Made by a program: the position numbers and the translations under genes. Under the pieces are notes generated by a model. That model was not told the DNA's origin. It did not search any database and worked only from the letters and a program-made list of their open reading frames with translations. A stretch of 64,000 nucleotides of DNA from the IMG/VR virus record IMGVR_UViG_3300040770_000334, positions 1-64,000 of that record; one strand, given 5' to 3'. This DNA comes from a virus. Position 1 is the first letter of the stretch. Each line of letters starts with the position of its first letter. This document shows positions 1-64,000 of the stretch, in pieces.

Positions 1-807
1 GTTACTGGATTTAGTAATACCGATATTAGAGTAACTGGTGGTACGTATTCAAATGGTACGACTATATTTACTAATAATACTGGTGGTACGTTTAACGTTA
101 CTGGATTTAGCACTGCACCTAACACATCCGCTATATCAGTAATTAATACGAATAATTTGTTCTCAACTGGTTTATCTAATTCTGGTGCTGGTGCAACGGG
201 TGTTACACACTCAATTTTCTTTGGTCAAGCAGCTGGGCAAAATGCCCCAAATGCGTTTAATTCAAGTTTCATTGGGCTTAATGCTGGTTTTAACGCAAGT
301 GGTGCATCTAATTCAAATTTATTTGGTCAGAATGCTGGTAGGGGAGCAACAAATGCATCTAACTCAAATTTCATTGGTCAGAGTGCTGGTGATGGAGCAA
401 CAGGCGCATCTTACTCAGTTTGCATCGGTTATTTTGCTGGGGCTGGTATTGGTAATGGTAGTATTGGGAATAATAATGTTATTATTGGAAATAATGTATC
501 ATTGGTTAGTGGTAAAACAAATAGTATAAACGTAGGTGGGGTTTTATTTGGAACTGGAATCTATTCAGCAACAACAGGTAACCCAAGTGTTTCTGGTCAA
601 ACAACTGGTAGGTTAGGTATTAACATTGTTGAACCAACAGCTGTATTACATATTGGACCATCAACAACATTATCTGCTCTTATGAGACTTAGTATAGGTT
701 CAGCACCGACAACACCAAACGATGGTGATATTTGGTTTGAATCAAATACTGACACTGGGCTAAAAATAAGAGTTAACGGAATTACAAAAACAATTACATT
801 AAGCTAA
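1..807 (+). CDS. Tail fibre / adhesin repeat protein, C-terminal part
   Basis: The frame is open from base 1, so this is the 3' end of a gene that begins outside the window; the TTG at 157 is internal. It opens with a 30-residue module (DIRVTGGTYSNGT...NVTGFS) that recurs in the fibre genes at 11.0 and 12.8 kb. A run of roughly 17-residue repeats follows, of the form SNFIGQSAG plus a small-residue spacer, resembling the head repeats of trimeric autotransporter adhesins; a beta-roll or trimeric fibre is inferred. Near the C-terminus a GINIVEPTAVLHI segment matches the 'GInt-P-aLhv' pattern common in Bacteroidota fibre-like proteins. The last 70 residues differ from the 12.8 kb paralogue. Likely role: host-surface binding at the virion distal end. 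Confidence 0.8.
   Translation, partial: VTGFSNTDIRVTGGTYSNGTTIFTNNTGGTFNVTGFSTAPNTSAISVINTNNLFSTGLSNSGAGATGVTHSIFFGQAAGQNAPNAFNSSFIGLNAGFNASGASNSNLFGQNAGRGATNASNSNFIGQSAGDGATGASYSVCIGYFAGAGIGNGSIGNNNVIIGNNVSLVSGKTNSINVGGVLFGTGIYSATTGNPSVSGQTTGRLGINIVEPTAVLHIGPSTTLSALMRLSIGSAPTTPNDGDIWFESNTDTGLKIRVNGITKTITLS
22..111 (+). repeat. 30-codon fibre module, copy 1
   Basis: A 90-base in-frame unit encoding a 30-residue Gly/Thr-rich module. Close copies lie in two other fibre genes (11519-11986, 13096-13185, 14404-14493, 14617-14706, 15166-15255). Nucleotide identity is high enough to support homologous exchange. Confidence 0.85.
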
Positions 808-11005: not shown

Positions 11006-12685
11006 ATGGCAAATAGAATAACCACACACATTTTAAAAAATAGTGATGTAATTGCAAGACCGTTACCTTCGGTATTATTAAAAGGTGAACCAATTATTAA
11101 TACCGCTGAAGGTATTATGTTCTTCTCTGGTTCTACTAGCTCAACAGCTGGTTGGACACAAGCTGGTCCTAACCCTTCATTTTTTGAGGTAGGGTCTAAT
11201 CTTTATGATTTAAAAATTAGAAATAGAATAACAGCATACAATGGTTTAACTAACCTAACAGGTAAATTCCTTTCTGGTACAACTAGTGGGTTCGTTTTAG
11301 CCGATATAGCAAATATTGTTGGTGTTGATACATATGTTACTGGTGGTACTTACAACGCTGGTACAGCAACCTTCAGAAATAATTTCGGTGCATCATTTAA
11401 CGTTACTGGATTCAAAGAATCTGACTTGGTTGTAACTGGTGCTACTGGTAATGATAGTGTTAAAACTTATACCTTCACAAATAATACAGGTGGTACATTT
11501 ACTGTTAATGCATTATCTGATATTCGTGTAACTGGTGGTACTTTCTCAAACGGTACGGCTATTTTCACAAATAGTACTGGTGGTACGTTTAACGTTGCTG
11601 GTTTTAGTGATGTTCGTGTAACTGGTGGTACTGCTAATGATAGTGCTAAAACTTATACCTTCACAAATAATACAGGTGGTACTTTTAACGTTAACGCATT
11701 AAACGACATACGTGTAACTGGTGGTACTTACTCAAACGGTACAGCTATTTTCAGTAATAATACTGGTGGTACGTTTAACGTTACTGGTTTCAAAGAATCT
11801 GATACTGTAGTAACTGGGGCGACTGGTAATGATAGTGCTAAAACTTATACGTTCACCAACAATACTGGTGGTACTTTCAGTGTTAACGCATTATCCGACA
11901 TACGTGTAACTGGTGGTACTTTCTCAAATGGTACAGCATCGTTTACAAATAGTACTGGTGGTACGTTTAACGTTGGTGGTTTTGCTACTGGTACATCAAG
12001 TAGTGATACTTATGTTAGTGGTTTTACATACACCCCAACACAAAATAAATTTACAATAGCGCAAAACGGAATAGCTAATCTAGATGTAACGCTTTCAGCT
12101 GTATCTGGTTTAACTGTATCTGATTTAGCAACAAATAGACTTGTTTATACAACAACTGGTGGTAAACTATTAACTGGTACCGCAGTTTTTGATGGAACTA
12201 ATACTAACTTACCATCGAATGGTTCGTTAACTGTTGGTAGTGGTGGTTTAATCATTGGTAGTGGTGGTTCACCAAGTGTTGCTGGAACTGGAGACCTTAT
12301 TGTTAATGGTAACATAACAGTATTTGGTAATGCCTTCTCAGCATTTACATCTCAATTATATGTTGAGGATAACAACATTTCACTTAACTTTAACCCTACT
12401 GGAAGTACTGTCGCAACATCTGTTGGTGCTGGTTGGACTATCCAAGATGGTAATGGTGTTAGTACTGGTGACGTTAACTTCGATATTAGAGCAATGAACG
12501 TATTTAGTGGGCTAACTGGTACACAAATACCGAATGTTAGTGAATATGGTGGGGCAACTGGATACGCAAATAGAGGTTTTGTTACACAACTAAACGATAT
12601 CGTTATTCGAAGCACAAATATCAACACACCAAATGGTGTTAGGTTATTGGCCGAATTTGATGTTTTAGATGGTGGGGTTTACTAA
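11006..12685 (+). CDS. Repeat-rich tail fibre protein
   Basis: A 559-residue protein. The N-terminus (MANRITTHILKNSDV, then KGEPIINTAEGIMFFSG) matches the N-terminus of the 12.8 kb fibre (MANRKNTFLIKRSNV, GELALNTADVILYTSG), so both probably attach at the same baseplate site. Residues of about 105-330 are tandem Gly/Thr/Asn-rich modules of about 30 residues (RVTGGTFSNGT...GGTFNV) alternating with a variant (NDSAKTYTFTNNTGGTF). The C-terminal part (about 330-559) has a non-repetitive head-like segment ending DVLDGGVY. It is preceded by a late-type motif and followed by a strong terminator. Expected role: host binding. Confidence 0.75.
   Translation: MANRITTHILKNSDVIARPLPSVLLKGEPIINTAEGIMFFSGSTSSTAGWTQAGPNPSFFEVGSNLYDLKIRNRITAYNGLTNLTGKFLSGTTSGFVLADIANIVGVDTYVTGGTYNAGTATFRNNFGASFNVTGFKESDLVVTGATGNDSVKTYTFTNNTGGTFTVNALSDIRVTGGTFSNGTAIFTNSTGGTFNVAGFSDVRVTGGTANDSAKTYTFTNNTGGTFNVNALNDIRVTGGTYSNGTAIFSNNTGGTFNVTGFKESDTVVTGATGNDSAKTYTFTNNTGGTFSVNALSDIRVTGGTFSNGTASFTNSTGGTFNVGGFATGTSSSDTYVSGFTYTPTQNKFTIAQNGIANLDVTLSAVSGLTVSDLATNRLVYTTTGGKLLTGTAVFDGTNTNLPSNGSLTVGSGGLIIGSGGSPSVAGTGDLIVNGNITVFGNAFSAFTSQLYVEDNNISLNFNPTGSTVATSVGAGWTIQDGNGVSTGDVNFDIRAMNVFSGLTGTQIPNVSEYGGATGYANRGFVTQLNDIVIRSTNINTPNGVRLLAEFDVLDGGVY
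11519..11986 (+). repeat. Array of 30-codon fibre modules
   Basis: Near-identical 90-base units start at 11519, 11705 and 11897, separated by a variant unit carrying a NDSAKTYTF segment. They are the same module as at 22-111 and in the 12.8 kb fibre gene. Confidence 0.85.
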
Positions 12686-12840: not shown

Positions 12841-15800
12841 ATGGCAAATAGAAAAAATACGTTTTTAATAAAACGTTCAAACGTTCCTGGTAATAAACCT
12901 ACAGCTGGTCAGATTTTACTGGGTGAATTAGCCCTTAACACAGCTGATGTTATTTTATATACTTCTGGAACAACAGCAAATTCTATATTGCCAATTGGTT
13001 GGGATAGGGTGAGCAAGACTGGTGATACCATGACTGGGCCTCTTTACTCACCAACAATATCAGCAACAACATACCTTAATTTACCAATAACAGCTGACAT
13101 ACGTGTAACTGGTGGTACGCATTCAAATGGTACTGCCACGTTTACAAATAATACTGGTGGTACGTTTAACGTTACTGGATTTAGTACTGGTGGTGGAAGT
13201 AGTACTATTTTAACTGGTGGTACGTTTAATAATGGTGTTGCAGTATACACTAATAACTCTGGTGGTACTTTTAATGTAACTGGGTTTACGTCATCGAACA
13301 TTCCAGTTAAATCAGAACTTGGTTCATCATTCTCTAAACTTCAAGATTTTATTGATGTTGGTTGGTCTGCTGGTAGGATTTCTGGTGGTGAATTGGTTAA
13401 TAATGGAAATGGTACTGTTAACATACTATTAGGTTCTGGTATGATTAAAACAACCGATAATATTCTTGGAAACACAAATTTCTTTAGTTGGAACACGCAG
13501 AATAACATATCATTAGTAAATGAACAAACATCTTACCTTTATGTCGATTATAATGGTGGATTACCTTTAATTACAGCAACAACGGATTCACTGAGCGTTA
13601 CACAAACAACACAGTTTATTTTAGCATCTGTTTATAGGAAAAACAACGATATCTATACGGCACAAACTGGTACAGAGATATCTAACTTACCTAGAAAAAT
13701 ACAACGACGATTAACTGAAGCTTTTGGTTATCAGAGAACATCTGGTATCATAACAAGTGAAACTGGTACATTAGGTTTTAAGGTGTCTACTGGTATTATA
13801 TGGTCATCCTTAAATAGAAACATATTCCCACCATTCTCAACTATTTCTGGTGGTACATTTACATTATTTACTAGAAATGGAGTTGGTGGGTTCAATGAAT
13901 TAGCAAGTCAAACTACGTTAGACCCTAACATATACGATAATGACGGAACCACACCACAATTAACAAACGGTAGGTATTCTTCTTATTTCGTATATGTTGG
14001 AACAGGTGGTAAGGTAGACGTATTAATGGGTCAAACAAATACAACCTTATCATTAACCCAGAGTAGTGTTGTTCCAGCTAACCTACCAAAGGTAATGAAT
14101 GATTTTAGTTTATTTGCGGCTAAAATAATTATATTAAAAGGTGCAAATACTTTTACTGAGGTGCAATTACCGTATGGTACACTTGTATCTCAAGGCTCTA
14201 CTAATAACCATAATGAATTATCGTCTCTTCAAGGTGGTAGTGTTGGGGAATACTATCACTTAACATCAAATGATTATAATACAGTGTTGGGTGTTAACAC
14301 ATCATTACAACAAAAAGCTAATCTAACTGGTGCAACGTTTACTGGTGGTGTATCAGCTACAACAATTTCAGCAACAACATACCTTAATTTACCAATAACA
14401 GCTGACATACGTGTAACTGGTGGTACACATTCAAATGGTACAGCAACCTTTACAAATAATACTGGTGGTACATTTAATGTTACTGGTTTTAGTACTGGTG
14501 GTGGTGGAAGTAGTACATTCACAGGTGGTACGGTTAGTGGTGCAACGCAGTTCACTGGTGGCCTAACAGCTAATACTATTTCAGCAACAACATATTTAAA
14601 TTTACCAATAACAACAGATATTAGAGTAACTGGTGGAACTTATTCAAACGGTACAACGTTATTCACAAATAATACTGGTGGTACATTTAATATTACTGGT
14701 TTTACCACAAATACTTATGGCGATTTAAGACAAAAAAATACCGTAACTACAACGGGAACATCACAAACACTCTTAGGTATAATAACTGGGATTACTATTG
14801 GTACATATATTATTGAGTCATACGTTACTGCAAATAAATCAAATAATGAGTATGGTGTTTGGAAAAGAACATTAGGCGTAACTACTAGTGGTGGTACTCC
14901 TGTTATTGTTCATGAAAACGCTGATTTAGATAAAGTATCTTCTGGATTTACTGGAAACACTATAGTATATAGTGCAATTACTGGAAATGCAATTAATATT
15001 TATGTTACAGGTATTTCAGCAAACACATATAACTGGGCATCATATTATAATATTATTGACCAAGGAATTGCTGCTAATAATATATTAACATTATCAACAA
15101 ATATTTCTGCATCAACAATAGTTGTTGGTGCTATAACAGCCACTAATTATTTAGGTTTACCAACAGATATTAGAGTAACTGGTGGAACACATTCAAATGG
15201 TACAGCCACATTTACAAATAATACTGGTGGCACGTTTAATGTTACTGGTTTTAGTACTGGTGGTACTGGTAGTGTGTCACCGATAACAATTGTTAACACA
15301 TCAAGCTTATTCTCAACAGGTTTAGCTAATACTGGGAATGGCTCAATAGGAGTTGATTCACTTTTCTTTGGTAGAAGTGCTGGTAATGGAGCAACAAATG
15401 CTAGTAACTCTAACTTTTTTGGTTTTAGTGCTGGTCAAAATGCTATAAATGCTAACAATTCAAATTTCATTGGAGCTCAAGCTGGACAAGAAGCAACAAA
15501 CGCTACTTATTCAAATTTTATCGGATTCCAAGTAGGTAGTGCGACAAGTGCTCAATTCTCAAACTTCTTTGGTTTTCAAACTGGTAATCAAGCAACAAAT
15601 GCCAGTAATTCAAATTTCTTTGGTCAAAATGCTGGATTTCAAGCAACAACTGCTAATGATTCAAATTTCTTTGGTTATTATGCTGGTAATGGGGCTACGG
15701 GTGCTTCTTTTTCAAATTTCATTGGTCAGAGTGCTGGTGACTCAGCATCAAGTGCGACTGGTTCAAATTTTATCGGTCATAATGCTGGGCAATTTTCAAT

Positions 15801-16287
15801 AGGTGCTTCACAATCAAATTTTATAGGTTACCAAGCTGGTGTTCTTGCAACAAATGCAAGTGGTTCAACCTTTATTGGTTCCCAAGCTGGTAGAAGCGCA
15901 ACAGGTGCTTCTTACTCAACCTTAATTGGTTTTAATGTCGGTAACGGTGCAAACTTAAAAAGTATTGGGTCAAATAATATAATTATTGGTACTAACATAT
16001 CATTGGTTAGTGGTAAAACAAATAGTATTAATTTAGGTGGTGTTTTATTTGGGACTGGGGTCTATTCAACAATAACGGGTAATCCAAGTATTACACCACA
16101 AACCCAAGGTAAAATAGGCGTTAACATTATTGACCCAATCCAAGCATTTGAGGTATCGGGTGGAACAAGGTTATATGGTGGTTTAACCGCAACAACAATA
16201 TCGGCAACAACATACCTTAATTTACCATCTACTGGTGGTGGTCTATCTTTTGGTCAATTATACGCAATAACAACATTAAACATATAA
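12841..16287 (+). CDS. Large tail fibre / trimeric adhesin-like protein
   Basis: A 1148-residue protein. The N-terminal anchor domain is shared with the 11 kb fibre. Four 30-residue modules (DIRVTGGTHSNGT...NVTGFS), two of them after an ATTYLNLPIT linker, are spread through the protein. A non-repetitive middle follows the first module (about residues 155-480). About 13 tandem repeats of roughly 17 residues (NASNSNFFGFSAGQNA type) fill about residues 820-1040. An IGVNIIDP motif and a final copy of the TTYLNLP linker close the protein. The 17-residue repeats resemble the YadA/Hia head repeat pattern, so a trimeric beta-roll is inferred. The C-terminal half is a close paralogue of the partial gene at the window start. 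It probably binds the host surface. Confidence 0.78.
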   Translation: MANRKNTFLIKRSNVPGNKPTAGQILLGELALNTADVILYTSGTTANSILPIGWDRVSKTGDTMTGPLYSPTISATTYLNLPITADIRVTGGTHSNGTATFTNNTGGTFNVTGFSTGGGSSTILTGGTFNNGVAVYTNNSGGTFNVTGFTSSNIPVKSELGSSFSKLQDFIDVGWSAGRISGGELVNNGNGTVNILLGSGMIKTTDNILGNTNFFSWNTQNNISLVNEQTSYLYVDYNGGLPLITATTDSLSVTQTTQFILASVYRKNNDIYTAQTGTEISNLPRKIQRRLTEAFGYQRTSGIITSETGTLGFKVSTGIIWSSLNRNIFPPFSTISGGTFTLFTRNGVGGFNELASQTTLDPNIYDNDGTTPQLTNGRYSSYFVYVGTGGKVDVLMGQTNTTLSLTQSSVVPANLPKVMNDFSLFAAKIIILKGANTFTEVQLPYGTLVSQGSTNNHNELSSLQGGSVGEYYHLTSNDYNTVLGVNTSLQQKANLTGATFTGGVSATTISATTYLNLPITADIRVTGGTHSNGTATFTNNTGGTFNVTGFSTGGGGSSTFTGGTVSGATQFTGGLTANTISATTYLNLPITTDIRVTGGTYSNGTTLFTNNTGGTFNITGFTTNTYGDLRQKNTVTTTGTSQTLLGIITGITIGTYIIESYVTANKSNNEYGVWKRTLGVTTSGGTPVIVHENADLDKVSSGFTGNTIVYSAITGNAINIYVTGISANTYNWASYYNIIDQGIAANNILTLSTNISASTIVVGAITATNYLGLPTDIRVTGGTHSNGTATFTNNTGGTFNVTGFSTGGTGSVSPITIVNTSSLFSTGLANTGNGSIGVDSLFFGRSAGNGATNASNSNFFGFSAGQNAINANNSNFIGAQAGQEATNATYSNFIGFQVGSATSAQFSNFFGFQTGNQATNASNSNFFGQNAGFQATTANDSNFFGYYAGNGATGASFSNFIGQSAGDSASSATGSNFIGHNAGQFSIGASQSNFIGYQAGVLATNASGSTFIGSQAGRSATGASYSTLIGFNVGNGANLKSIGSNNIIIGTNISLVSGKTNSINLGGVLFGTGVYSTITGNPSITPQTQGKIGVNIIDPIQAFEVSGGTRLYGGLTATTISATTYLNLPSTGGGLSFGQLYAITTLNI
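13096..13185 (+). repeat. 30-codon fibre module copy
   Basis: A 90-base unit, nearly identical in sequence to 22-111 and 14404-14493; it follows the ATTYLNLPIT linker. Confidence 0.85.
14404..14493 (+). repeat. 30-codon fibre module copy
   Basis: The second copy in this gene. Together with its upstream linker, the stretch from about 14360 nearly repeats 13052-13200. Confidence 0.85.
14617..14706 (+). repeat. 30-codon fibre module copy
   Basis: The third copy; it uses the GATATTAGAGTAACTGGTGG variant also found at base 22. Confidence 0.85.
15166..15255 (+). repeat. 30-codon fibre module copy
   Basis: The fourth copy, directly upstream of the 17-residue repeat region; the same arrangement occurs at 22-111. 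Confidence 0.85.
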
Positions 16288-17802: not shown

Positions 17803-20427
17803 ATGGCAAATAATAGTAATGGTTACATAGGAGTTAATGGTGGTTGGAGTGGAATAACAAGTAGGTCTATTGGTGTTGATAACCAATGGAAGGACCAGAC
17901 ATTTCAATATGTTGGTGATAATGGGTATTGGCGATTAACATATACTAAAAACCCAATAGATTTAGGTGGTAACTTTTTTGTCCGATACCTAGAAGGTTAT
18001 GAAGTAGTAACGGGTAACTCATTAACGATATACGGAAGTAATTTAGTTGGAAATCAAGTTATGTTCCCAGCAGATGGTGGTTATTTTGAATTGACTGCTA
18101 ATCTTAGTGATTTATATGGAAATTTTGCTGGTGGTACGTTAGTTGGGACACCAAGTATTGGTCAATTATTTGGTGGTCAACCAGCTCTGGGTATAACAAC
18201 AAATAATGATTATTTCAACTTACCTAGTGATTTAGATGCAATTGGTATTTTTGGTAATGATGGTAATAAAAATTACAATTTAGGTTCTTATTTCTATTTA
18301 AACACTTTACCTAGTGGGTCAACAGTTACCCCTGTTTTATCTTATGGTAACGCAGCTAATGGTATGGAAGTAGTGGTAACATCTGGTGGGAATTTACAAC
18401 AAAAAATATATACTGGTAGTTCACCTTTATTAATTGACTCTGGGAGTGGAAAAATAAAGGTAGGGTGGAATTCATTTTTAATTAATAGAACAACTGGTAC
18501 AACAAAAATGTATTTATCTGGAACAACAACAGCTGTAACAACATCATCATTAGTTACAATAACCCCATCTCTTAATAATTTAGTTAGAGTTGGTGCTTCA
18601 TTTACTAGTGGGTCAACAACGCCTATATCACCAGCTATGTCAACTACTAGGACAGCACCAGCGTATGCACTTAGTAACAATAATTTAACCATAACATCTA
18701 GTGATGTAAACTATTATACATCAAGAAGTAATATGGTTATATCACGTAATACTGGTAAATACTATATCGAAGTATTTATTAATGCTGTTGGTTCTGGATG
18801 GCAATGGTTAGGTCTTGGTAGTACATCTGATTCGGTGACTAATGGTAATGGTGTTGGTTTATTAACTTGGAGTATAACAAGTAGTTCTAGAACTTTTAAT
18901 AAAGATAACGGTGTTGTATGGGGTGGTGGTGCAAATACATTCACTACTGGTGATATTGTAGGTTGTATTTACGATTCAAATGCTGGGTCATTAACATGGT
19001 ATAGAAACAATGTTTTATTAGGTACTAGCACAACTGCTGTTATTGGCGATACGGAATTTATCTTTTCATCAGATACTGGTGGGTCCGACACAATGAGATT
19101 TACTTCTGGTAGTTGGACATACGCACCACCTGTTGCTGGCGCAATCGCTTTTCCACCAGCAACAGTTATTGTTGCTGGTACTGTTTACTCAACTATCGGT
19201 ACTGGGTATAAATACGTTTATTGGAAATTACAAGCGTTAACACCGATTAACCTTTCAAAATATTTAAATAGGGGTAACACTAAAATTATCTTTAAAAACA
19301 AAACAACTTTAGCTGAATCAATTGTACCAAGTAATTGGTTATTAAATAGTACTAATGAATATATCTCTTTTACTGTACCACCAAACGTTACCGAAGGTAT
19401 TTATGATGTATTACTTAGATACTCAGATATCGAGGAATCATATGGTCTTCCAGTTACCGTTAATAAACCAGTAATTGCAACCACGGAATTCATTGACGAT
19501 TTTAGTGATGAAACAACACTTAAAAATAACTATCTTTTCTCAAACACTGCTTGGGGTGGTGCCAACGGTGGTGTTGTACCAGATAATGTGTTTTTAAGAG
19601 ATGGTGTTTTAATATTAAAAGGTAATGGTGATAATTATACTGGAACAACTCAAGGTGTTGATGGTAATGGAGTTAAAAAATTCCATACTAACCCTTCAGA
19701 CCCACAATTTGGTTTACCATGGACAAATAGGGTTGGTGGGGTTATATCGTATAATAAACTGACTGGGTATGGTAGTTATGAGGTAAACGCATTGATACCT
19801 AATGTATTAGGCGTGTCTTATGCTTTTTGGACATTTTTCTATAACGAAATATATCTTGATGACCCAAGGTATAATGAGTATCTAGCTGAAGGTTTGTCAC
19901 CACAAGGTGTTAGTAATTATATTGCTCGTAACCATGAAATAGATATAGAATTCCCGTCACATTTAACTGGTGGAACTTATAATAACCCAAGCCTTAATAA
20001 TATGAAATGTAATACTTGGATAGGTGAATTATCTGCTGAAAATACTATTGCGTTAACACCTGTAGGTTTTAATATTGCTGATGGTAATTATCATAAAATT
20101 AGGTTTGATTGGTACCCAACACGTGTTGACTACTATGTTGACGATGTTTTAAAAAATAGTGTCACTAAAACGATACCAAATATAGCTGGTTATTTTACTT
20201 TTGGGTCATGGTTCCCATCATCACCTTTAACAGCTAAACCTTGGTTGGCTGACCCAGAAAATGCATGGGCTGGTGGAACGGTAACAGCTGATGGTGGTAT
20301 GAAAGCTAATTTTGGTTCCGTTGAGCTTAAAGTTAAGGGGTTTAAATTTACACCATTTAGTGGTTTCACAGCACAACAGAGAGTATTAGGTGTTACATAC
20401 CCATTTGGAGACTACATAAAACCATAA
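17803..20427 (+). CDS. Virion polysaccharidase: SPRY-like domain plus GH16-like domain
   Basis: An 874-residue protein. Residues 1-285 form a beta-rich N-terminal part. Residues about 287-444 look like a SPRY/B30.2 domain (GKYYIEVFIN, GDIVGCIYD, LTWYRNNVLLGT). Residues about 490-550 look Ig-like. Residues about 560-874 look like glycoside hydrolase family 16: a concanavalin-type beta-sandwich with the catalytic signature HEIDIEFPS (E712, D714, E716 = ExDxE), preceded by GSYEVNALIPN and AFWTFF and followed by DGNYHKIRFDWYPTRVDYYVDD. GH16 enzymes cut beta-glucans, agars, carrageenans and similar polymers, so this is probably a tail depolymerase that degrades capsule or algal-type polysaccharide. 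It sits at the end of the fibre operon. The exact substrate is not readable. Confidence 0.82.
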   Translation: MANNSNGYIGVNGGWSGITSRSIGVDNQWKDQTFQYVGDNGYWRLTYTKNPIDLGGNFFVRYLEGYEVVTGNSLTIYGSNLVGNQVMFPADGGYFELTANLSDLYGNFAGGTLVGTPSIGQLFGGQPALGITTNNDYFNLPSDLDAIGIFGNDGNKNYNLGSYFYLNTLPSGSTVTPVLSYGNAANGMEVVVTSGGNLQQKIYTGSSPLLIDSGSGKIKVGWNSFLINRTTGTTKMYLSGTTTAVTTSSLVTITPSLNNLVRVGASFTSGSTTPISPAMSTTRTAPAYALSNNNLTITSSDVNYYTSRSNMVISRNTGKYYIEVFINAVGSGWQWLGLGSTSDSVTNGNGVGLLTWSITSSSRTFNKDNGVVWGGGANTFTTGDIVGCIYDSNAGSLTWYRNNVLLGTSTTAVIGDTEFIFSSDTGGSDTMRFTSGSWTYAPPVAGAIAFPPATVIVAGTVYSTIGTGYKYVYWKLQALTPINLSKYLNRGNTKIIFKNKTTLAESIVPSNWLLNSTNEYISFTVPPNVTEGIYDVLLRYSDIEESYGLPVTVNKPVIATTEFIDDFSDETTLKNNYLFSNTAWGGANGGVVPDNVFLRDGVLILKGNGDNYTGTTQGVDGNGVKKFHTNPSDPQFGLPWTNRVGGVISYNKLTGYGSYEVNALIPNVLGVSYAFWTFFYNEIYLDDPRYNEYLAEGLSPQGVSNYIARNHEIDIEFPSHLTGGTYNNPSLNNMKCNTWIGELSAENTIALTPVGFNIADGNYHKIRFDWYPTRVDYYVDDVLKNSVTKTIPNIAGYFTFGSWFPSSPLTAKPWLADPENAWAGGTVTADGGMKANFGSVELKVKGFKFTPFSGFTAQQRVLGVTYPFGDYIKP

Positions 20428-52959: not shown

Positions 52960-53346
52960 ATGAGTAATGGTCGTTTTATCAATATAAACTATCCCTTCAA
53001 GGATAGTGCTAAAGGTTTCTTCTTAGATTTAAATTCAGACAATGCTTCAGCTATTAAGGCTGATTTAATGCATTTAATATTAACTAGAAAAGGTCAAAGG
53101 TTATATAACCCAGATTTTGGGACAGATTTATTAAGGTATATCTTCGAACCAGAAGATGATGTCAGTTTAATGCAAGTTAAAGAAGAAATAAACAATGTTG
53201 TTAAGAAATATTTACCTAAACTACAGATAAATGAGATAATGGTCGACCAATCAACTGAAAGTGAATATGCTGCTGTTGTAAGGATTGACTATACTATAAC
53301 AGATGACGTATTCGATACAAAAGATTTCGTTGTGATTAATTTATAA
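52960..53346 (+). CDS. 25: Baseplate wedge protein (T4 gp25-like)
   Basis: A 128-residue protein (T4 gp25 is 132). Typical gp25/GPW features are NINYPFKDSAKGFFLDLN, then a LILTRKGQRLYNPDFGT segment and LLRYIFEP. It is a core wedge component and helps initiate sheath assembly. It begins a late operon and is followed 24 bases later by the gp6-like gene, the conserved gp25-gp6 order of contractile tails. Confidence 0.92.
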   Translation: MSNGRFININYPFKDSAKGFFLDLNSDNASAIKADLMHLILTRKGQRLYNPDFGTDLLRYIFEPEDDVSLMQVKEEINNVVKKYLPKLQINEIMVDQSTESEYAAVVRIDYTITDDVFDTKDFVVINL

Positions 53347-53370: not shown

Positions 53371-55194
53371 ATGGCAAATAAGGGGATAGGATACAATAGT
53401 AGGAATTTCGCTGATATAAGAACCGATTTGGTTAATATGGTAAGACAGTATTACCCAGACATATTTAACGATTTTAACGATGCTTCAGTAGGTATGATGT
53501 TACTTGAACTAAATGCGGCTGTTGGTGATATGTTATCATTAAATACCGATAGAATGTTCCAAGAAACACAAATAGATTACGCTAAAGAACGTAAATCTGT
53601 TTTATCTATGGCAAGAACTTTTGGTCTTAAAATACCAGGAAAACGTCCAAGTATAACAATTGTTGATTTTACAGTAACTCTACCAGTGTTGGGTGACACA
53701 TTTGATGTGTCTTACGCACCGTTAATTAGGGTTGGTTCACAAGTGAGTGGTGCTGGTAAATTATTTGAAACAACTAATGATATTGATTTCTCTAGTCCAT
53801 TTACAATTGGTGGTATCCCAAATAGATTAATATTACCTAATTTTGACAGTAACGGTTCTTTAATTAACTATACTTTAGTTAAACGAGAATTAGTCACTAA
53901 TGGATATAGTAAAGTGTTTAAAAGAGTGATTGACTCATCAGACGTTAAACCATTTTTAGAGGTAATATTACCAGATGACAATGTGTTGTCAATTGAATCG
54001 GTAATAACTATAGCTGGTACTAACTCAAATAAGGAGCCAAACCTAGACCAATTTTTAAATTTAAACAATAAATGGTTTGAACTAGATTCATTAGCGGAAG
54101 ATAAAGTGTTTATTGAAGATAACACAAGAATTAGTGATAATTCTGGTATAAAACCAGGAAAATGGATGTCTATAACTAGAAAATTTATACATGAATATAC
54201 TGATTTAGGTTTTTCTAAATTAATTTTTGGTGGTGGAACACAAGATACCAGCAGTTTAAACAATTTTGATACCAATAAAGCATTGGTTAATCAGATTGGT
54301 AATTTTATTAATAATATGTCTTTAGGTGTTACACCTACAGCTAACACAACTATGTTTATCAAATATCGAGTAGGTGGTGGTGGGGATACAAACCTAGGAC
54401 CAAATGTTTTAACTGGTCTGGGGATAATCAATATGTCTATTGATGGTGAAAACGCTACTATTAATAATGCAGTTAAGTCTTCGTTAAAGGTAAATAATAC
54501 TTTCCCAGCTTTAGGTGGTAGGGATATTCCTAGTGTTGCAGAAATAAAGAATTTGGTTAAATATAATTTTTCGGCTCAAAATAGAGCTGTTACAATTAAA
54601 GATTACCAATCTAGAATTAGTTTAATGCCTGGTAGATTTGGAGTTCCATTTAGAAGTGGCGTTTTTGAAGAGCAAAATAAGGTTAAGGTATACATTCTAG
54701 GGTTAAATAATGAAAGTAAGCTAACAAACTCATCAACTACTGCTTTAAAGGAAAACATATCAAATTATTTATCTGATTATAGAATGTTAAATGATTATGT
54801 TGAGATTAATAATGGTAGAATAATAAATATAGGTTTCCAGATAGATTTATTTATCGATAAAAAAGCTCCACAGTCACAAATAATATCCCAAGTTATTAAT
54901 AATGTTCAAGAATATATGAATATTAACAATTTCAGTATGGGTGATAATATTTATTTATCGGCATTAATTGAACTGATAAATAATGTTGGTGGTGTTATGA
55001 ACGTTATTGACCTTAGAGTTTATAATAAGGTAGGTAATGGATTGTATAGTATAAATGAGATATCACAACAATACGCTGATAATGAAACTAGACAAATTGA
55101 TTTATCTAGTGATTATACATTATTTGGTGAACCAACAAGTATGTTTGAAGTACTAATTCCAGCGAAGGATATCATTGTTAGAGTAAAATCGTAA
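53371..55194 (+). CDS. 6: Baseplate wedge protein (T4 gp6-like)
   Basis: A 607-residue protein (T4 gp6 is 660). It has the gp6/baseplate J-like layout. The N-terminal helical domain contains DIRTDLVNMVRQYYPDIF, ASVGMMLLELNAAVGDML and a Tyr/Asp run IDYAKERKSVLSMARTFG. The central beta domain and C-terminal core domain contain QNRAVTIKDYQSRI and LMPGRFGVP. It forms the wedge backbone joining the gp25 side to the hub. Confidence 0.9.
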   Translation: MANKGIGYNSRNFADIRTDLVNMVRQYYPDIFNDFNDASVGMMLLELNAAVGDMLSLNTDRMFQETQIDYAKERKSVLSMARTFGLKIPGKRPSITIVDFTVTLPVLGDTFDVSYAPLIRVGSQVSGAGKLFETTNDIDFSSPFTIGGIPNRLILPNFDSNGSLINYTLVKRELVTNGYSKVFKRVIDSSDVKPFLEVILPDDNVLSIESVITIAGTNSNKEPNLDQFLNLNNKWFELDSLAEDKVFIEDNTRISDNSGIKPGKWMSITRKFIHEYTDLGFSKLIFGGGTQDTSSLNNFDTNKALVNQIGNFINNMSLGVTPTANTTMFIKYRVGGGGDTNLGPNVLTGLGIINMSIDGENATINNAVKSSLKVNNTFPALGGRDIPSVAEIKNLVKYNFSAQNRAVTIKDYQSRISLMPGRFGVPFRSGVFEEQNKVKVYILGLNNESKLTNSSTTALKENISNYLSDYRMLNDYVEINNGRIINIGFQIDLFIDKKAPQSQIISQVINNVQEYMNINNFSMGDNIYLSALIELINNVGGVMNVIDLRVYNKVGNGLYSINEISQQYADNETRQIDLSSDYTLFGEPTSMFEVLIPAKDIIVRVKS

Positions 55195-55246: not shown

Positions 55247-55588
55247 ATGAGTTGTAATTGTAAAACAGAATTAAGCGACAGCTATGATATAGAGGAAGTT
55301 GAGGTTGAAAAAATTAGTTTAGTTAATCTAGTTATTAGTTATGTGGTAAAAATGTTTGGGTTTCTAATATTATTATTAGGCTTACCAATAATAAATTTAG
55401 TTTTAGTTTGGTTCATGTTCAATACTTTAGTGTTAACTAAAAGTGTTGATATTGCACCATTATTAACTAAAATTGGTCGAAAATTTTCAAATAATGAAGA
55501 TGACGATGAAGAATATGAAGATGAAGATTTAACTGAGGATGATGTTACAGTTATGAATGTTGAAGATATAACAGAAAAAGGTAAATAA
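55247..55588 (+). CDS. Small membrane protein in baseplate cluster
   Basis: A 113-residue protein. It starts MSCNCK, has a hydrophobic region of about 40 residues (about 23-63, including MFGFLILLLGLPIINLVLVW) that can form one hairpin or two membrane passes, and ends in a strongly acidic tail (EDDDEEYEDEDLTEDD). Not recognised. It ends 5 bases before the next gene, which also carries a hydrophobic segment, so the two may act together in the host membrane during infection; this is inference. Confidence 0.65.
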   Translation: MSCNCKTELSDSYDIEEVEVEKISLVNLVISYVVKMFGFLILLLGLPIINLVLVWFMFNTLVLTKSVDIAPLLTKIGRKFSNNEDDDEEYEDEDLTEDDVTVMNVEDITEKGK

Positions 55589-55593
55589 AAAGT

Positions 55594-58500
55594 ATGTCAG
55601 ATACTATAAGAATAAATACAACACCAAATGGAAGCGATAAATATGTTAAGGTAAAATTAGACCAAGAATTTGATTTTATTGAGATTCTTTCATTAAAATT
55701 ATCACAAGAAGACACCTACCGACAATTTTGCTCGGACTATGGGGTAATTGTCGGTAGGGTTTCCGTTAATAATGGTTTTGGTGTACCTAACGCTATGGTT
55801 AGTGTGTTCATACCTCTAGATGATGTTGATAAAAATGATTCAGAAATTAGAGGGTTATACCCATACACGTTACTAAGTGATAAAGATGAAAACGGTGTAA
55901 GATATAACTTATTACCAAAAGAAGGTGGTTCAGACATATGTACTACTAAAATTGGTACTTTCCCAACAAAAAGGGAAGTTTTAGATAATGACCAGCTAGG
56001 TTATGTCTATGAAAAATATTATAAGTTTACTACTACAACTAACCATGCTGGTGATTTCATGATATTTGGTGTACCACTAGGAACCCATACAGTGCATGTT
56101 GATGCAGATATATCTGATATTGGTATCTTATCCCAAAGACCTTATGATTTAATCAGTCAAGGTACACCAAAAGAATTTTTTGATAGCTCTACTAAATTCA
56201 AGAAAGACAAAAATTTAGATAGGTTGGTACAAGTTAAAACATTAAATTCAGCTGTGAATGTCCAACCTTTTTGGGGTGATGTTGATAATTGTGAAATTGG
56301 TATATCAAGATTAGATTTTGACTTAAATTATTCAGTTAGACCAACGGCCATCTTTATGGGTAGTATTTTTGGTGATAACGAAAAAAATAGTATTAGTAAA
56401 AGATGTAGGCCCAGAAAATTAGTTGGTGCGATGTGTGAGCAAACAACATCTACTGGTACAATACAAATGATTAGAAAATCGTTTGATGATACAATCGAAC
56501 AGTTTGATGTTGATGGTGGAAACCTAATAGATGATGATGGTACTTGGTCATACCAAATACCTATGAATTTAGATTACGTGGTAACAAACGAATATGGTGA
56601 TTTAATCCCATCACAAGACCCAAATGTAGGTGTTCCGACTAGAGCTAGTGTTAGGTTTAATATTGGTATGGATGATACTGGTGGTGATGGTAGATTGCGC
56701 ACTAGAGCTAGATATCTAGTACCAAATAACCCAGTAGGTTTAGACCAAATCGATTATGAGTTTGGTCCGAATACAAAGGATACTAGTTTTCGGGAAATGT
56801 ATTGGAATAAGATATATACTGTCTCTAATTTCATATCAAGATTTCAGACTAGTAATACTGCTAATAATAGAGCGTATACTGGTGTGAAAGATGTTGATGG
56901 GTGTGTTGGTACAAAAACACCGTTCCCATACAATAGAGTAGATACTCAAGGTAATCCTATTTTTTTTATTTTATGTCTAATAATAACGGTGCTTATTTTT
57001 ATAATTACAATAATAAATAGCGCAGTCATACCTGTTATTAACACGCTGATTAGTGCTGTAAGGATATTTACTAAAAAAGTAAAATACATTGACTGTGTAA
57101 ACTTCAACTGTAATGGCATTTATTATGCTGAAGGTTGTGGTAAGAGTACTAGGGGTTGGGATGGTATTAGTAATTCACCAAAAGAAAATAGTGGACTTGG
57201 TAATTGCATTAAATATCAATTAGCTGAATCGTTAAATTTATTTAAATTAGATTTCTATAATGATTGGGTTCATGGTAGTTTATTTAGTTTTTTAGTTAAG
57301 TATAAGAAAAAAACTAAAAGAAAAAATAAGAATGGTGAAGAAAAATTTTGTGAGTACGAGTGTTATGATGGTAATTTCACACCGATAGATGGTGTTGATG
57401 CTAATGGTAATAATTTTCCAGATAATAAATGTCATGTAAATTATCTTAAAGATTCTTGTTATGGCACTGGTAACGATTCACAAAACGGTGAGGTAGGGTT
57501 AACCTTAAACGAGGGTTTAATTAAAAAAGTTGATGGTGAATTATATTATGCCGCAACAACACATAATAACGATGTTAAGATGTTCGCTACTGATATAGTT
57601 AATTTAGGTTCAGTACTTGATTGCGACTGGCAAGGTATACCTAAAATTAACGAAAACCTTTTACCTACAACATACAAACTAGCACCAGATAGTGAGGAAA
57701 AAAATGATGCTGGTATTGTAGAAGTTTGTGGTAACGTTTCATTAGTGAATGAAGGGTCATTATTTTTTAAAATAGACTGCGGTGGGTTACATGTTAACCA
57801 ACAAGGTTGTTTAAATGTTAGACATTTGTGTGAGTTTGGTGTTAATATCGATGAAGCTACGTTTGATTCAGATGGGAATCTTTTGACACCAAGTAATTGC
57901 GTAATAGGTTCTTCAGAAGTTGACGATGATAATGGTAAATTTTTTAGAGACGTATTCTATGGTCTAAATAGTTCAGCAACGCCTTGGATTGGGACGACAG
58001 AATTAATTGGTATCGGGACAGGTTATTCAACTAATTTTAATATAAATAACGTAAGTACTTATAGTTTTACAAACGCTGTGGCTAACGGTGCTGATTATTT
58101 AAAATTTAGGGGTTACAAGGAAAATACACAAAATCAATTCGCACAAACAAAGAATTCATATTTCTTTTATTTTGGTTTAACACCAGGAAAAACTGCTCTA
58201 GATAAAATGAATAGTAAATTTTTCACTAAATGTCCGATAACTACCGATTCAAATATTCTTATATTAACATCAACAGTCAATGATGTGCAAGAAACCAATA
58301 ACGGTTCTTTAAGTTTCTCATTTATTGGTGGGGTACCAGAATATACTTATAGCGTTACTAGTGATGCGTATAGTGTTACTGGTATTACTGTAAATAATGG
58401 GACTGTTAGTTTACCTAATATTGCTAAAGGTGATTACCTTATTACTGGTGTTGATGCATTAGGTGTTAGTGTGTCTAAATTAGTTACTATAACTGGGAAA

Positions 58501-59271
58501 TCGACACCAATTGGTTTTGCTACTGCAACCAAGAATACCTCAACTACTACTAGTTCTGATGGCCAAATTACTATTTCAAGTGTTTCTGGTGGCGTACCAC
58601 CATATACGTATACGGTACTTAAATATGGTGCCCCATTGAGTAGTGGTCAAGTATTAGTTGGTCCATTGACCTTTACTGCGCCAACAATCATTAGTGGTTT
58701 ACCATACGATATAACCAATGGACATACATTAAAAATAACAGATAGTGCTAATTCAGAATTTTTCATTTCTAGTTTGAAAATAGACAGTAACCCTATTTTC
58801 ACTTTAAGTGTTTTAGATAAGGAAAATCCTTGTTTTAATGACAGTGAGAGTGGGTATATTTCTTATGGTATTTCTGGTGGTCAACCACCTTATAGCATAT
58901 CAACAACTGGACCTAATGGTTTCCTATCTACTAGCACCGTATTAAGTTTCTTAGGTATTGGTAGTTATACAACGACAGTGACAGATGGTTTAGGTGCGAT
59001 AACTAATAATGTTGTTAGTTTAGTCCCATCACCAGAAATAACACTTACATTAAATTCAAGTTTAAATGGTGTTGTTAGTGTTATGGTTGGGTATAGTTTT
59101 AATGCGCCAACAAATGTTGAGATATTTTATTATGATGCTAATGGTACTGAAGTGATTCTATCAAGCGCACCATACGTTAATTCATCAACTGAAATAATCT
59201 TTAATTCAATAGCTGGTCGTGAAATTACTGTTAGATTGGATAACTGTTATAGTAACACAATCACTACTTAA
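55594..59271 (+). CDS. Large baseplate-cluster protein with SprB-like repeats
   Basis: A 1225-residue protein. N-terminal residues about 45-200 contain a carboxypeptidase-regulatory-like beta-sandwich (VGRVSVNNGFGVPNAMVSVF, then GDFMIFGVPLGTHTV). A hydrophobic segment of about 35 residues lies at 456-492 (FFILCLIITVLIFIITIIN). A Cys-rich region follows (about 500-800). The C-terminus has three units resembling SprB repeats: NGSLSFSFIGGVPEYTYSV (about residue 900), DGQITISSVSGGVPPYTYTV (about 985), and SGYISYGISGGQPPYS with an upstream ENPCFND (about 1080). SprB is the surface adhesin of gliding flavobacteria. Baseplate membership is inferred from neighbours; repeat function is inferred to be surface attachment. 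Confidence 0.7.
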   Translation: MSDTIRINTTPNGSDKYVKVKLDQEFDFIEILSLKLSQEDTYRQFCSDYGVIVGRVSVNNGFGVPNAMVSVFIPLDDVDKNDSEIRGLYPYTLLSDKDENGVRYNLLPKEGGSDICTTKIGTFPTKREVLDNDQLGYVYEKYYKFTTTTNHAGDFMIFGVPLGTHTVHVDADISDIGILSQRPYDLISQGTPKEFFDSSTKFKKDKNLDRLVQVKTLNSAVNVQPFWGDVDNCEIGISRLDFDLNYSVRPTAIFMGSIFGDNEKNSISKRCRPRKLVGAMCEQTTSTGTIQMIRKSFDDTIEQFDVDGGNLIDDDGTWSYQIPMNLDYVVTNEYGDLIPSQDPNVGVPTRASVRFNIGMDDTGGDGRLRTRARYLVPNNPVGLDQIDYEFGPNTKDTSFREMYWNKIYTVSNFISRFQTSNTANNRAYTGVKDVDGCVGTKTPFPYNRVDTQGNPIFFILCLIITVLIFIITIINSAVIPVINTLISAVRIFTKKVKYIDCVNFNCNGIYYAEGCGKSTRGWDGISNSPKENSGLGNCIKYQLAESLNLFKLDFYNDWVHGSLFSFLVKYKKKTKRKNKNGEEKFCEYECYDGNFTPIDGVDANGNNFPDNKCHVNYLKDSCYGTGNDSQNGEVGLTLNEGLIKKVDGELYYAATTHNNDVKMFATDIVNLGSVLDCDWQGIPKINENLLPTTYKLAPDSEEKNDAGIVEVCGNVSLVNEGSLFFKIDCGGLHVNQQGCLNVRHLCEFGVNIDEATFDSDGNLLTPSNCVIGSSEVDDDNGKFFRDVFYGLNSSATPWIGTTELIGIGTGYSTNFNINNVSTYSFTNAVANGADYLKFRGYKENTQNQFAQTKNSYFFYFGLTPGKTALDKMNSKFFTKCPITTDSNILILTSTVNDVQETNNGSLSFSFIGGVPEYTYSVTSDAYSVTGITVNNGTVSLPNIAKGDYLITGVDALGVSVSKLVTITGKSTPIGFATATKNTSTTTSSDGQITISSVSGGVPPYTYTVLKYGAPLSSGQVLVGPLTFTAPTIISGLPYDITNGHTLKITDSANSEFFISSLKIDSNPIFTLSVLDKENPCFNDSESGYISYGISGGQPPYSISTTGPNGFLSTSTVLSFLGIGSYTTTVTDGLGAITNNVVSLVPSPEITLTLNSSLNGVVSVMVGYSFNAPTNVEIFYYDANGTEVILSSAPYVNSSTEIIFNSIAGREITVRLDNCYSNTITT

Positions 59272-63789: not shown

Positions 63790-64000
63790 ATGAGCAATAA
63801 TAAGGTAAAAGTAGTTGGATACGCTAAAAAAGAATTCTTTAATGGTGGTATAGAGTATCGAAATTTTACACCAGATTTAGTTGGTCAACAATCAACGAGT
63901 GGTGCAAACACCCCATTATTTACAATGGGGAATTTTGCTATTACAACAAATATGGACCCTAAAACGAGTAAAGACTTTATATCTAATGGTTTCTCAGACT
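63790..64000 (+). CDS. Structural protein, N-terminal part (cut by window end)
   Basis: ATG at 63790, frame open to the window end (70 residues visible). KVVGYAKKEFFNGGIEYRNF is followed by DLVGQQSTSGANTPLFTMGNF and TTNMDPKTSKDF. This opening is reminiscent of large baseplate-cluster proteins of related myophages. Function cannot be judged from the fragment. Confidence 0.6.
   Translation, partial: MSNNKVKVVGYAKKEFFNGGIEYRNFTPDLVGQQSTSGANTPLFTMGNFAITTNMDPKTSKDFISNGFSD

What the first reader, a model, noticed from the sequence alone, without database searches (positions are those of the whole stretch)
58270..59100. SprB-like adhesin repeats on a phage baseplate-region protein
Three C-terminal units show the SprB-repeat pattern (GSi-fsisGG-PPYtys ... 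G-Yt-tVtD-lGa). SprB is the mobile adhesin of gliding flavobacteria. A phage carrying the same repeats may mimic or bind host surface polymers or the gliding machinery. I do not know of SprB repeats described in phage baseplates.
Basis: partly seen in the sequence, partly recalled or inferred. Interest (0 to 1): 0.74.

Follow-up and report, generated by a model that had tools for sequence, protein, structure and literature searches.

The report
Adhesin-like repeats on phage tail protein
A large, fast-changing protein of an uncultivated T4-like phage ends in a chain of immunoglobulin-like modules of the kind that Bacteroidota bacteria use on their own surface adhesins, which probably helps the phage grip its host; such repeats on phage proteins are already in databases, but this carrier protein and its hot-spot behaviour appear undescribed.

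Summary
D2 matches Pfam SprB (PF13573) only at the margin: 22.2 bits in the protein scan (cut-off 28), 28.4 in the genome scan. Relatives make it firm: 14 of 18 aligned family members match, the best at 36 bits. A profile of the tails matches 17 of 80 Bacteroidota genomes (best 7e-21, spanning D1-D3; the top three hits are type-IX-secreted SprB-repeat adhesins) and none of 79 cyanobacteria. The phage tail lacks the type IX sorting signal.

The carrier sits beside gp25 and gp6 homologues. Its conserved core (aa 1-880) matches no tested T4, Flavobacterium-phage or PHROG baseplate protein. Core-only homologues end cleanly at residue ~880, and a tree needs several gains or losses of the tail. Between two sister phages compared over 54 kb this is the most divergent shared protein (86%; most others 98-100%), varying in a core patch and in D2/D3.

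Best reading: an exposed, diversifying host-recognition protein with an adhesin-type stalk, on phages of Bacteroidota. Virion location, ligand and any gliding connection are untested. 'SprB repeat' is already annotated on uncultured phage proteins: a new variant of a known kind.

The parts
55594..59271 (+). 1225-aa carrier protein: conserved core plus Ig/SprB-type tail
   Evidence: ORF; 39 homologous loci in IMG/VR, 3 in genome contigs, none in INPHARED phages
55594..58233 (+). Conserved core, aa 1-880, ending in the FFTKC motif; aa 1-450 median 70% identity between relatives
   Evidence: no PHROG match for the window protein; AF2 model poor, pLDDT 49, so no fold is claimed
56938..57066 (+). 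Conserved strongly hydrophobic segment, aa 449-491, transmembrane-like helix
   Evidence: Kyte-Doolittle maximum 3.45; a comparable segment in all 18 aligned members; AF2 helix 455-490 at pLDDT about 71-85
57001..57843 (+). Core hypervariable region, approx. aa 470-750 (conserved cysteines between variable stretches)
   Evidence: sliding identity of close pairs L013/L020 and L021/L023
58258..58491 (+). D1: Ig-like domain, weak SprB match (14.7 bits at 58294-58362)
58510..58782 (+). D2: Ig-like domain, best SprB match in this protein (58546-58614)
58801..59019 (+). D3: Ig-like domain; the D3 of L034 and L013 score about 36 bits to SprB; fast-diverging in close pairs
59071..59268 (+). D4: Ig-like domain without SprB motif; most divergent (median 24% identity)
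52960..53346 (+). gp25-like baseplate wedge protein
   Evidence: PF04965 E=5.8e-13, phrog_261
53371..55194 (+). gp6-like baseplate wedge protein
   Evidence: phrog_219 E=2.1e-19; about 28% identical to the baseplate wedge protein of Flavobacterium phage immuto
55247..55588 (+). Small membrane-segment protein (113 aa) directly upstream, also in the relatives read; second most divergent shared gene in the closest pair

Best explanation
The gene encodes a large structural protein, lineage-specific to uncultivated T4-like phages that most likely infect Bacteroidota. A conserved core anchors it in or near the baseplate (inferred from gene position). Its C-terminus is a chain of four Ig-like domains, homologous to the SprB-type repeats of host type-IX-secreted adhesins, that projects outward and contacts host surface polymers or surface proteins during adsorption. 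The core patch and D2/D3 diverge fast because the host surface changes. Shown: gene, domains, homology to Bacteroidota adhesin repeats, modular presence or absence, localised divergence, gene neighbourhood. Inferred: virion location, Bacteroidota host, ligand binding.
For: Neighbours are gp25 and gp6 homologues. The tail is a multi-domain Ig model at pLDDT 83. The best PDB structural matches are fragments of the Bacteroidota adhesin GhpA. The tail profile hits 17/80 Bacteroidota and 0/79 cyanobacterial genomes; the best three hits are proteins with 16-17 SprB repeats and a type IX sorting domain. Core-only homologues L017 and L028 keep the same flanking genes, and the tree needs 3 label changes, 2 of them forced by supported branches. 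Identity falls from 70% (aa 1-450) to 24% (D4). In L013/L020 this protein is 85.7% identical while almost all other shared genes over 54 kb are 95.5-100%. Shine-Dalgarno-like motifs are rare (2/40 ORFs against 17/26 in T4), as in a Flavobacterium phage (1/22).
Against: No proteomics or cryo-EM. The core model is too poor to place it, and the core matches no known baseplate protein. The strong transmembrane-like segment is unusual for a baseplate protein (T4 gp7 carries a weaker one). dN/dS stays below 1 in every domain, and raised dS in the variable patches points to import of divergent alleles, so positive selection is not shown. Some relatives do without the tail. One relative lies in a Prochlorococcus single-cell genome, so the host range of the family may be wider than Bacteroidota.
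Confidence: 0.57

Rival explanations
1. The Ig array is a general decoration or spacer (Hoc-like): it stiffens or extends the protein or sticks weakly to environmental glycans (mucus, algal or extracellular polysaccharide), without being the receptor-binding part.
For: The tail profile weakly matches phage Ig-like decoration proteins of known structure (9d7z E=1.7e-4, 5lxk 0.13); one family member and a SprB-rich protein of a related phage match the PHROG 'Hoc-like head decoration'; the tail is dispensable in some lineages; Ig-like phage proteins with mucin adherence are described, including a Flavobacterium phage (PMC6867891).
Against: The gene lies in the baseplate, not the capsid, cluster; divergence concentrated in D2/D3 of sister phages fits specific recognition better than a passive spacer; the profile matches Bacteroidota adhesin repeats far more strongly than Hoc-like proteins (7e-21 against about 1e-4, in searches of different sizes).
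Confidence: 0.27
2. Mimicry of the gliding machinery: the repeats let the phage bind the mobile SprB adhesin or its partners and ride the gliding track.
For: Repeats are homologous to SprB-type repeats; gliding adhesins have been proposed as phage receptors (PMC7345892, PMC13288928).
Against: PF13573 repeats also occur in type IX adhesins with other sorting domains; nothing ties these phages to a gliding host; the sorting domain of SprB-type adhesins is absent.
Confidence: 0.06
3. The protein is not virion-borne: it is a membrane-inserted late protein (for example for superinfection exclusion or lysis timing) whose Ig domains face the periplasm or the cell surface.
For: Strong conserved transmembrane-like segment and an adjacent small membrane-segment protein.
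Against: Same position between wedge genes and downstream tail-region genes in the relatives read; no obvious export signal at the N-terminus (by eye only).
Confidence: 0.1

Closest known systems
SprB repeat (Pfam PF13573) in type-IX-secreted adhesins of Bacteroidota
   Same: Same repeat type: family members exceed the curated cut-off; the tail profile aligns collinearly with about 250 residues of an adhesin with 17 SprB repeats
   Different: Three units only, borderline score in the window protein, no CHU_C or Por_Secre_tail sorting domain, placed on a phage protein
'SprB repeat [uncultured Caudovirales phage]' (UniProt A0A6J5LD72, A0A6J5LDA4)
   Same: Rank 1 and 3 viral structural matches, E=3.4e-13 and 9.8e-11; SprB repeats on phage proteins
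   Different: Their gene neighbourhood was not seen here; at 714 and 677 aa they are nearer in size to the stand-alone 713-aa repeat protein of L063 than to this carrier
Hoc and Hoc-like phage Ig decoration proteins (phrog_2973; T5-type decoration protein)
   Same: Ig-like domains on a phage protein, weak profile matches
   Different: Capsid decoration, not baseplate cluster; weaker match than to adhesins
Tentaclins (PMC10743442)
   Different: Tentaclins have an N-terminal C-lectin domain varied by a retroelement; no reverse transcriptase was found here and the architecture differs
Grappling hook protein GhpA of Aureispira (9fly, 9flv, 9flw)
   Same: Best PDB structural matches of the tail; a Bacteroidota adhesin of Ig-like modules
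   Different: Giant bacterial adhesin of thousands of residues; 17% identity

Membership tests
SprB repeat (PF13573) | Score over the curated cut-off of 28 bits | tested here: inconclusive
   Window protein 22.2 bits against 28.4 for D2 in the six-frame search; family members L034 36.2, L013 35.7 bits
SprB repeat (PF13573) | Homology to SprB repeats of cellular adhesins | tested here: met
   Tail profile hits 17/80 Bacteroidota genomes, best 7.3e-21; the top three proteins have 16-17 SprB repeats
SprB-type gliding / T9SS adhesin | C-terminal type IX sorting domain (CHU_C / TIGR04131 / TIGR04183) | tested here: not met
   No NCBIfam match in the tail; the cellular relatives have it
SprB-type gliding adhesin | Role in gliding motility | not testable with these tools
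   Needs a cultivated phage and host
Phage Ig-like decoration proteins (Hoc-like) | Ig-like beta-sandwich fold | tested here: met
   AF2 model, pLDDT 83; Foldseek matches to Ig/Fn3 chains
Phage Ig-like decoration proteins (Hoc-like) | PHROG profile match | tested here: not met
   No PHROG match for the window protein; 1 of 18 family members matches phrog_2973
T4-type baseplate wedge protein (gp7, gp8, gp10) | Sequence or profile homology | tested here: not met
   hmmsearch --max and hhalign of the core against T4 gp7, gp8, gp10 and immuto 162 give nothing
Virion structural protein | Present in purified virions | not testable with these tools
   Only gene position supports it
Tentaclin | N-terminal C-lectin domain | tested here: inconclusive
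   No Pfam lectin match; core fold unresolved
DGR target | Reverse transcriptase in the same phage | tested here: not met
   No RVT_1 in 12 phage records, which may be fragments

The most novel reading that the evidence does not exclude
A previously undescribed family of large T4-like-phage baseplate-region proteins, with a conserved membrane-type segment and a hypervariable cysteine-containing region, has captured the repeat modules of its hosts' own type IX adhesins as a replaceable receptor-binding arm, and this protein is the main locus where otherwise near-identical phages differ.
Probability: 0.35. Interest if true: 0.7.

Novelty: new variant of a known kind. Interest (0 to 1): 0.5.

Why it matters
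How phages recognise Bacteroidota, whose surfaces carry type-IX-exported adhesins and polysaccharides, is poorly known. A phage protein that combines a conserved anchor with host-adhesin-type repeats, and that is the most divergent shared gene between two sister phages, is a concrete candidate for the host-recognition determinant of an uncultivated phage lineage found in many metagenomes. It gives a direct test: do the alleles of the variable patches bind different strains?

Tried and rejected
Core structure prediction gave pLDDT 49; no fold search was run on it. Homology of the core to T4 gp7, gp8, gp10 or the large proteins of immuto and Mel-JY01: none; those two phage proteins instead match the window's downstream 1109-aa gene family (hhalign 7.7e-6 and 2.5e-9). 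Diversity-generating retroelement: no reverse transcriptase. Gene fission in tail-less relatives: rejected, the next gene starts at the stop codon. Composition artefact: other repeat-rich window proteins give no SprB match; reversed and shuffled tails were generated but not scanned. Gliding mimicry: no evidence beyond the family name. The original SprB paper (PMC2293251) is not held. Rumen-phage core as tblastn query against INPHARED: no match.

Full report
Observation. The gene at 55594-59271 encodes 1225 aa. AlphaFold2 with 16 homologous tails gives mean pLDDT 83 and a chain of beta-sandwiches that I divide into four. Pfam SprB is the only family under E=0.01 in the window protein (E=1.1e-4) but scores 22.2 bits against a cut-off of 28; the six-frame search scores the same D2 repeat at 28.4 bits. 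I treat the single protein as borderline. The family is not borderline: 14 of 18 aligned members match, with L034 and L013 near 36 bits, and across whole phage records 10 of 21 records searched have a match over the cut-off (the 21 include three cellular assemblies and two isolate phages).

What the repeats are related to. A profile of the tails searched against 80 Bacteroidota genomes matches in 17, best E=7.3e-21 over profile positions 23-298, that is D1-D3 in register. The top three proteins have 16-17 SprB repeats and type IX sorting domains. The same search in 79 cyanobacterial genomes matches none. Foldseek ranks Aureispira GhpA fragments first in the PDB and 'SprB repeat [uncultured Caudovirales phage]' first among viral models. 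By sequence profile the best solved structure is a phage Ig-like protein at 1.7e-4, so the relation to adhesins looks the stronger one, allowing for different search sizes. The phage tail has no sorting domain.

The carrier. The gene follows gp25 and gp6 homologues and a small membrane-segment protein. Thirty-nine IMG/VR loci and three loci in genome assemblies (two Bacteroidota MAGs, one Prochlorococcus single-cell genome) encode homologues; tblastn finds none in 50,697 phage records. The core, aa 1-880, is 53-64% identical to the closer relatives, carries a hydrophobic segment in all 18 aligned members, and matches no PHROG and no tested baseplate protein. In Flavobacterium phage immuto and in Mel-JY01 the large gene downstream of gp6 is related to the window's 1109-aa gene at 63790, not to this one, so the carrier is not shared with those phages at that position.

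Modularity. L017 (954 aa) and L028 (944 aa) stop just after the core motif and the next gene begins at once, with the same neighbours as in the window. The outgroup relatives L036 and L040 also end there. On a tree of core residues 1-480 the tail label needs three changes, two forced by supported branches, and tail-less L017 is sister to the window plus L034. In L036's phage, SprB repeats sit instead on a separate 713-aa protein (53.6 bits), and the window's own phage has another SprB unit on an 842-aa protein outside the window.

Divergence. Median pairwise identity falls from 70% (aa 1-450) to 39, 37, 29 and 24% for D1-D4. L013 and L020 come from sister phages compared gene by gene over 54 kb. 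Most shared genes there are 98-100% identical, the next lowest being 97.3%, 95.6% and the 115-aa neighbour at 91.3%; the carrier is 85.7%. A few small ORFs have no partner, and genes cut by the borders of the fetched stretches were not scored. The differences lie in aa ~470-750 and around D2/D3. In L021/L023 the carrier is again the lowest (67.3%, the small neighbour 68.8%); in L016/L024 it is lowest only marginally (91.8 against 91.9); in the tail-less pair L036/L037 it is not (95.4%). dN/dS is 0.06-0.11 in the first half of the core and 0.33-0.74 in D3, always below 1, and dS is also raised in the patches of L013/L020. This points to relaxed or diversifying change plus allele import, not to demonstrated positive selection. 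No reverse transcriptase was found.

Host. Shine-Dalgarno-like motifs precede 2 of 40 ORFs, against 17 of 26 in T4 and 1 of 22 in a Flavobacterium phage. With the MAG associations and the adhesin homology this favours Bacteroidota hosts; it is indirect. That Bacteroidota genes rarely use such motifs is from general knowledge.

Mechanism. The most likely reading is an exposed baseplate-region recognition protein with an adhesin-type Ig stalk. Literature: Ig-like domains on phage structural proteins are common and have been linked to mucin adherence, also in a Flavobacterium phage (PMC6867891); gliding adhesins have been proposed as phage receptors (PMC7345892, PMC13288928); tentaclins are a described family of Ig-bearing phage binding proteins (PMC10743442). 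I found no paper describing SprB repeats on phages, but database entries exist, so the repeats on phages are not new; the carrier family and its hot-spot behaviour appear to be.

Noticed in passing
window 56938-57066: Strongly hydrophobic, transmembrane-like 43-residue segment conserved in all 18 aligned members of a putative baseplate-region protein family; role unexplained.
   Followed up: partly
window 55247-55588: Small membrane-segment protein directly upstream of the carrier, also in the relatives read; second most divergent shared gene in the closest phage pair, so the two may work together.
   Followed up: partly
G000 67161-69689 (L060 7161-9689), outside the window: 842-aa protein of the same phage with a single canonical SprB unit (27.9 bits in Pfam scan, 31.2 in genome search).
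   Followed up: partly
L063 3737-5878: 713-aa protein of a related phage made largely of SprB repeats (53.6 bits), also matching the PHROG Hoc-like decoration family (2.8e-8).
   Followed up: partly
window 17803-20427: Protein with a glycosyl hydrolase family 16 domain and a SPRY domain, both over Pfam cut-off: a possible polysaccharide-degrading tail-region protein.
   Followed up: no
window 1-807, 11006-12685, 12841-16287; L060 9716-11902: Several proteins share a repeat like VTGGTYSNGTxxFTNNTGGTFNVTGF; no Pfam match in the two tested.
   Followed up: no
L060 3790-7119 (window 63790 onward): 1109-aa protein, related to the large gene after gp6 in immuto and Mel-JY01, carries a C-terminal region with two similar units that the shorter 882- and 871-aa homologues seem to lack.
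   Followed up: partly
L046: Homologue of the core in a Prochlorococcus single-cell genome assembly: either a wider host range of this phage family or a co-sorted phage.
   Followed up: no
L042 (G010): Near-identical sister of L034 whose ORFs are broken by apparent frameshifts, probably sequencing error.
   Followed up: no
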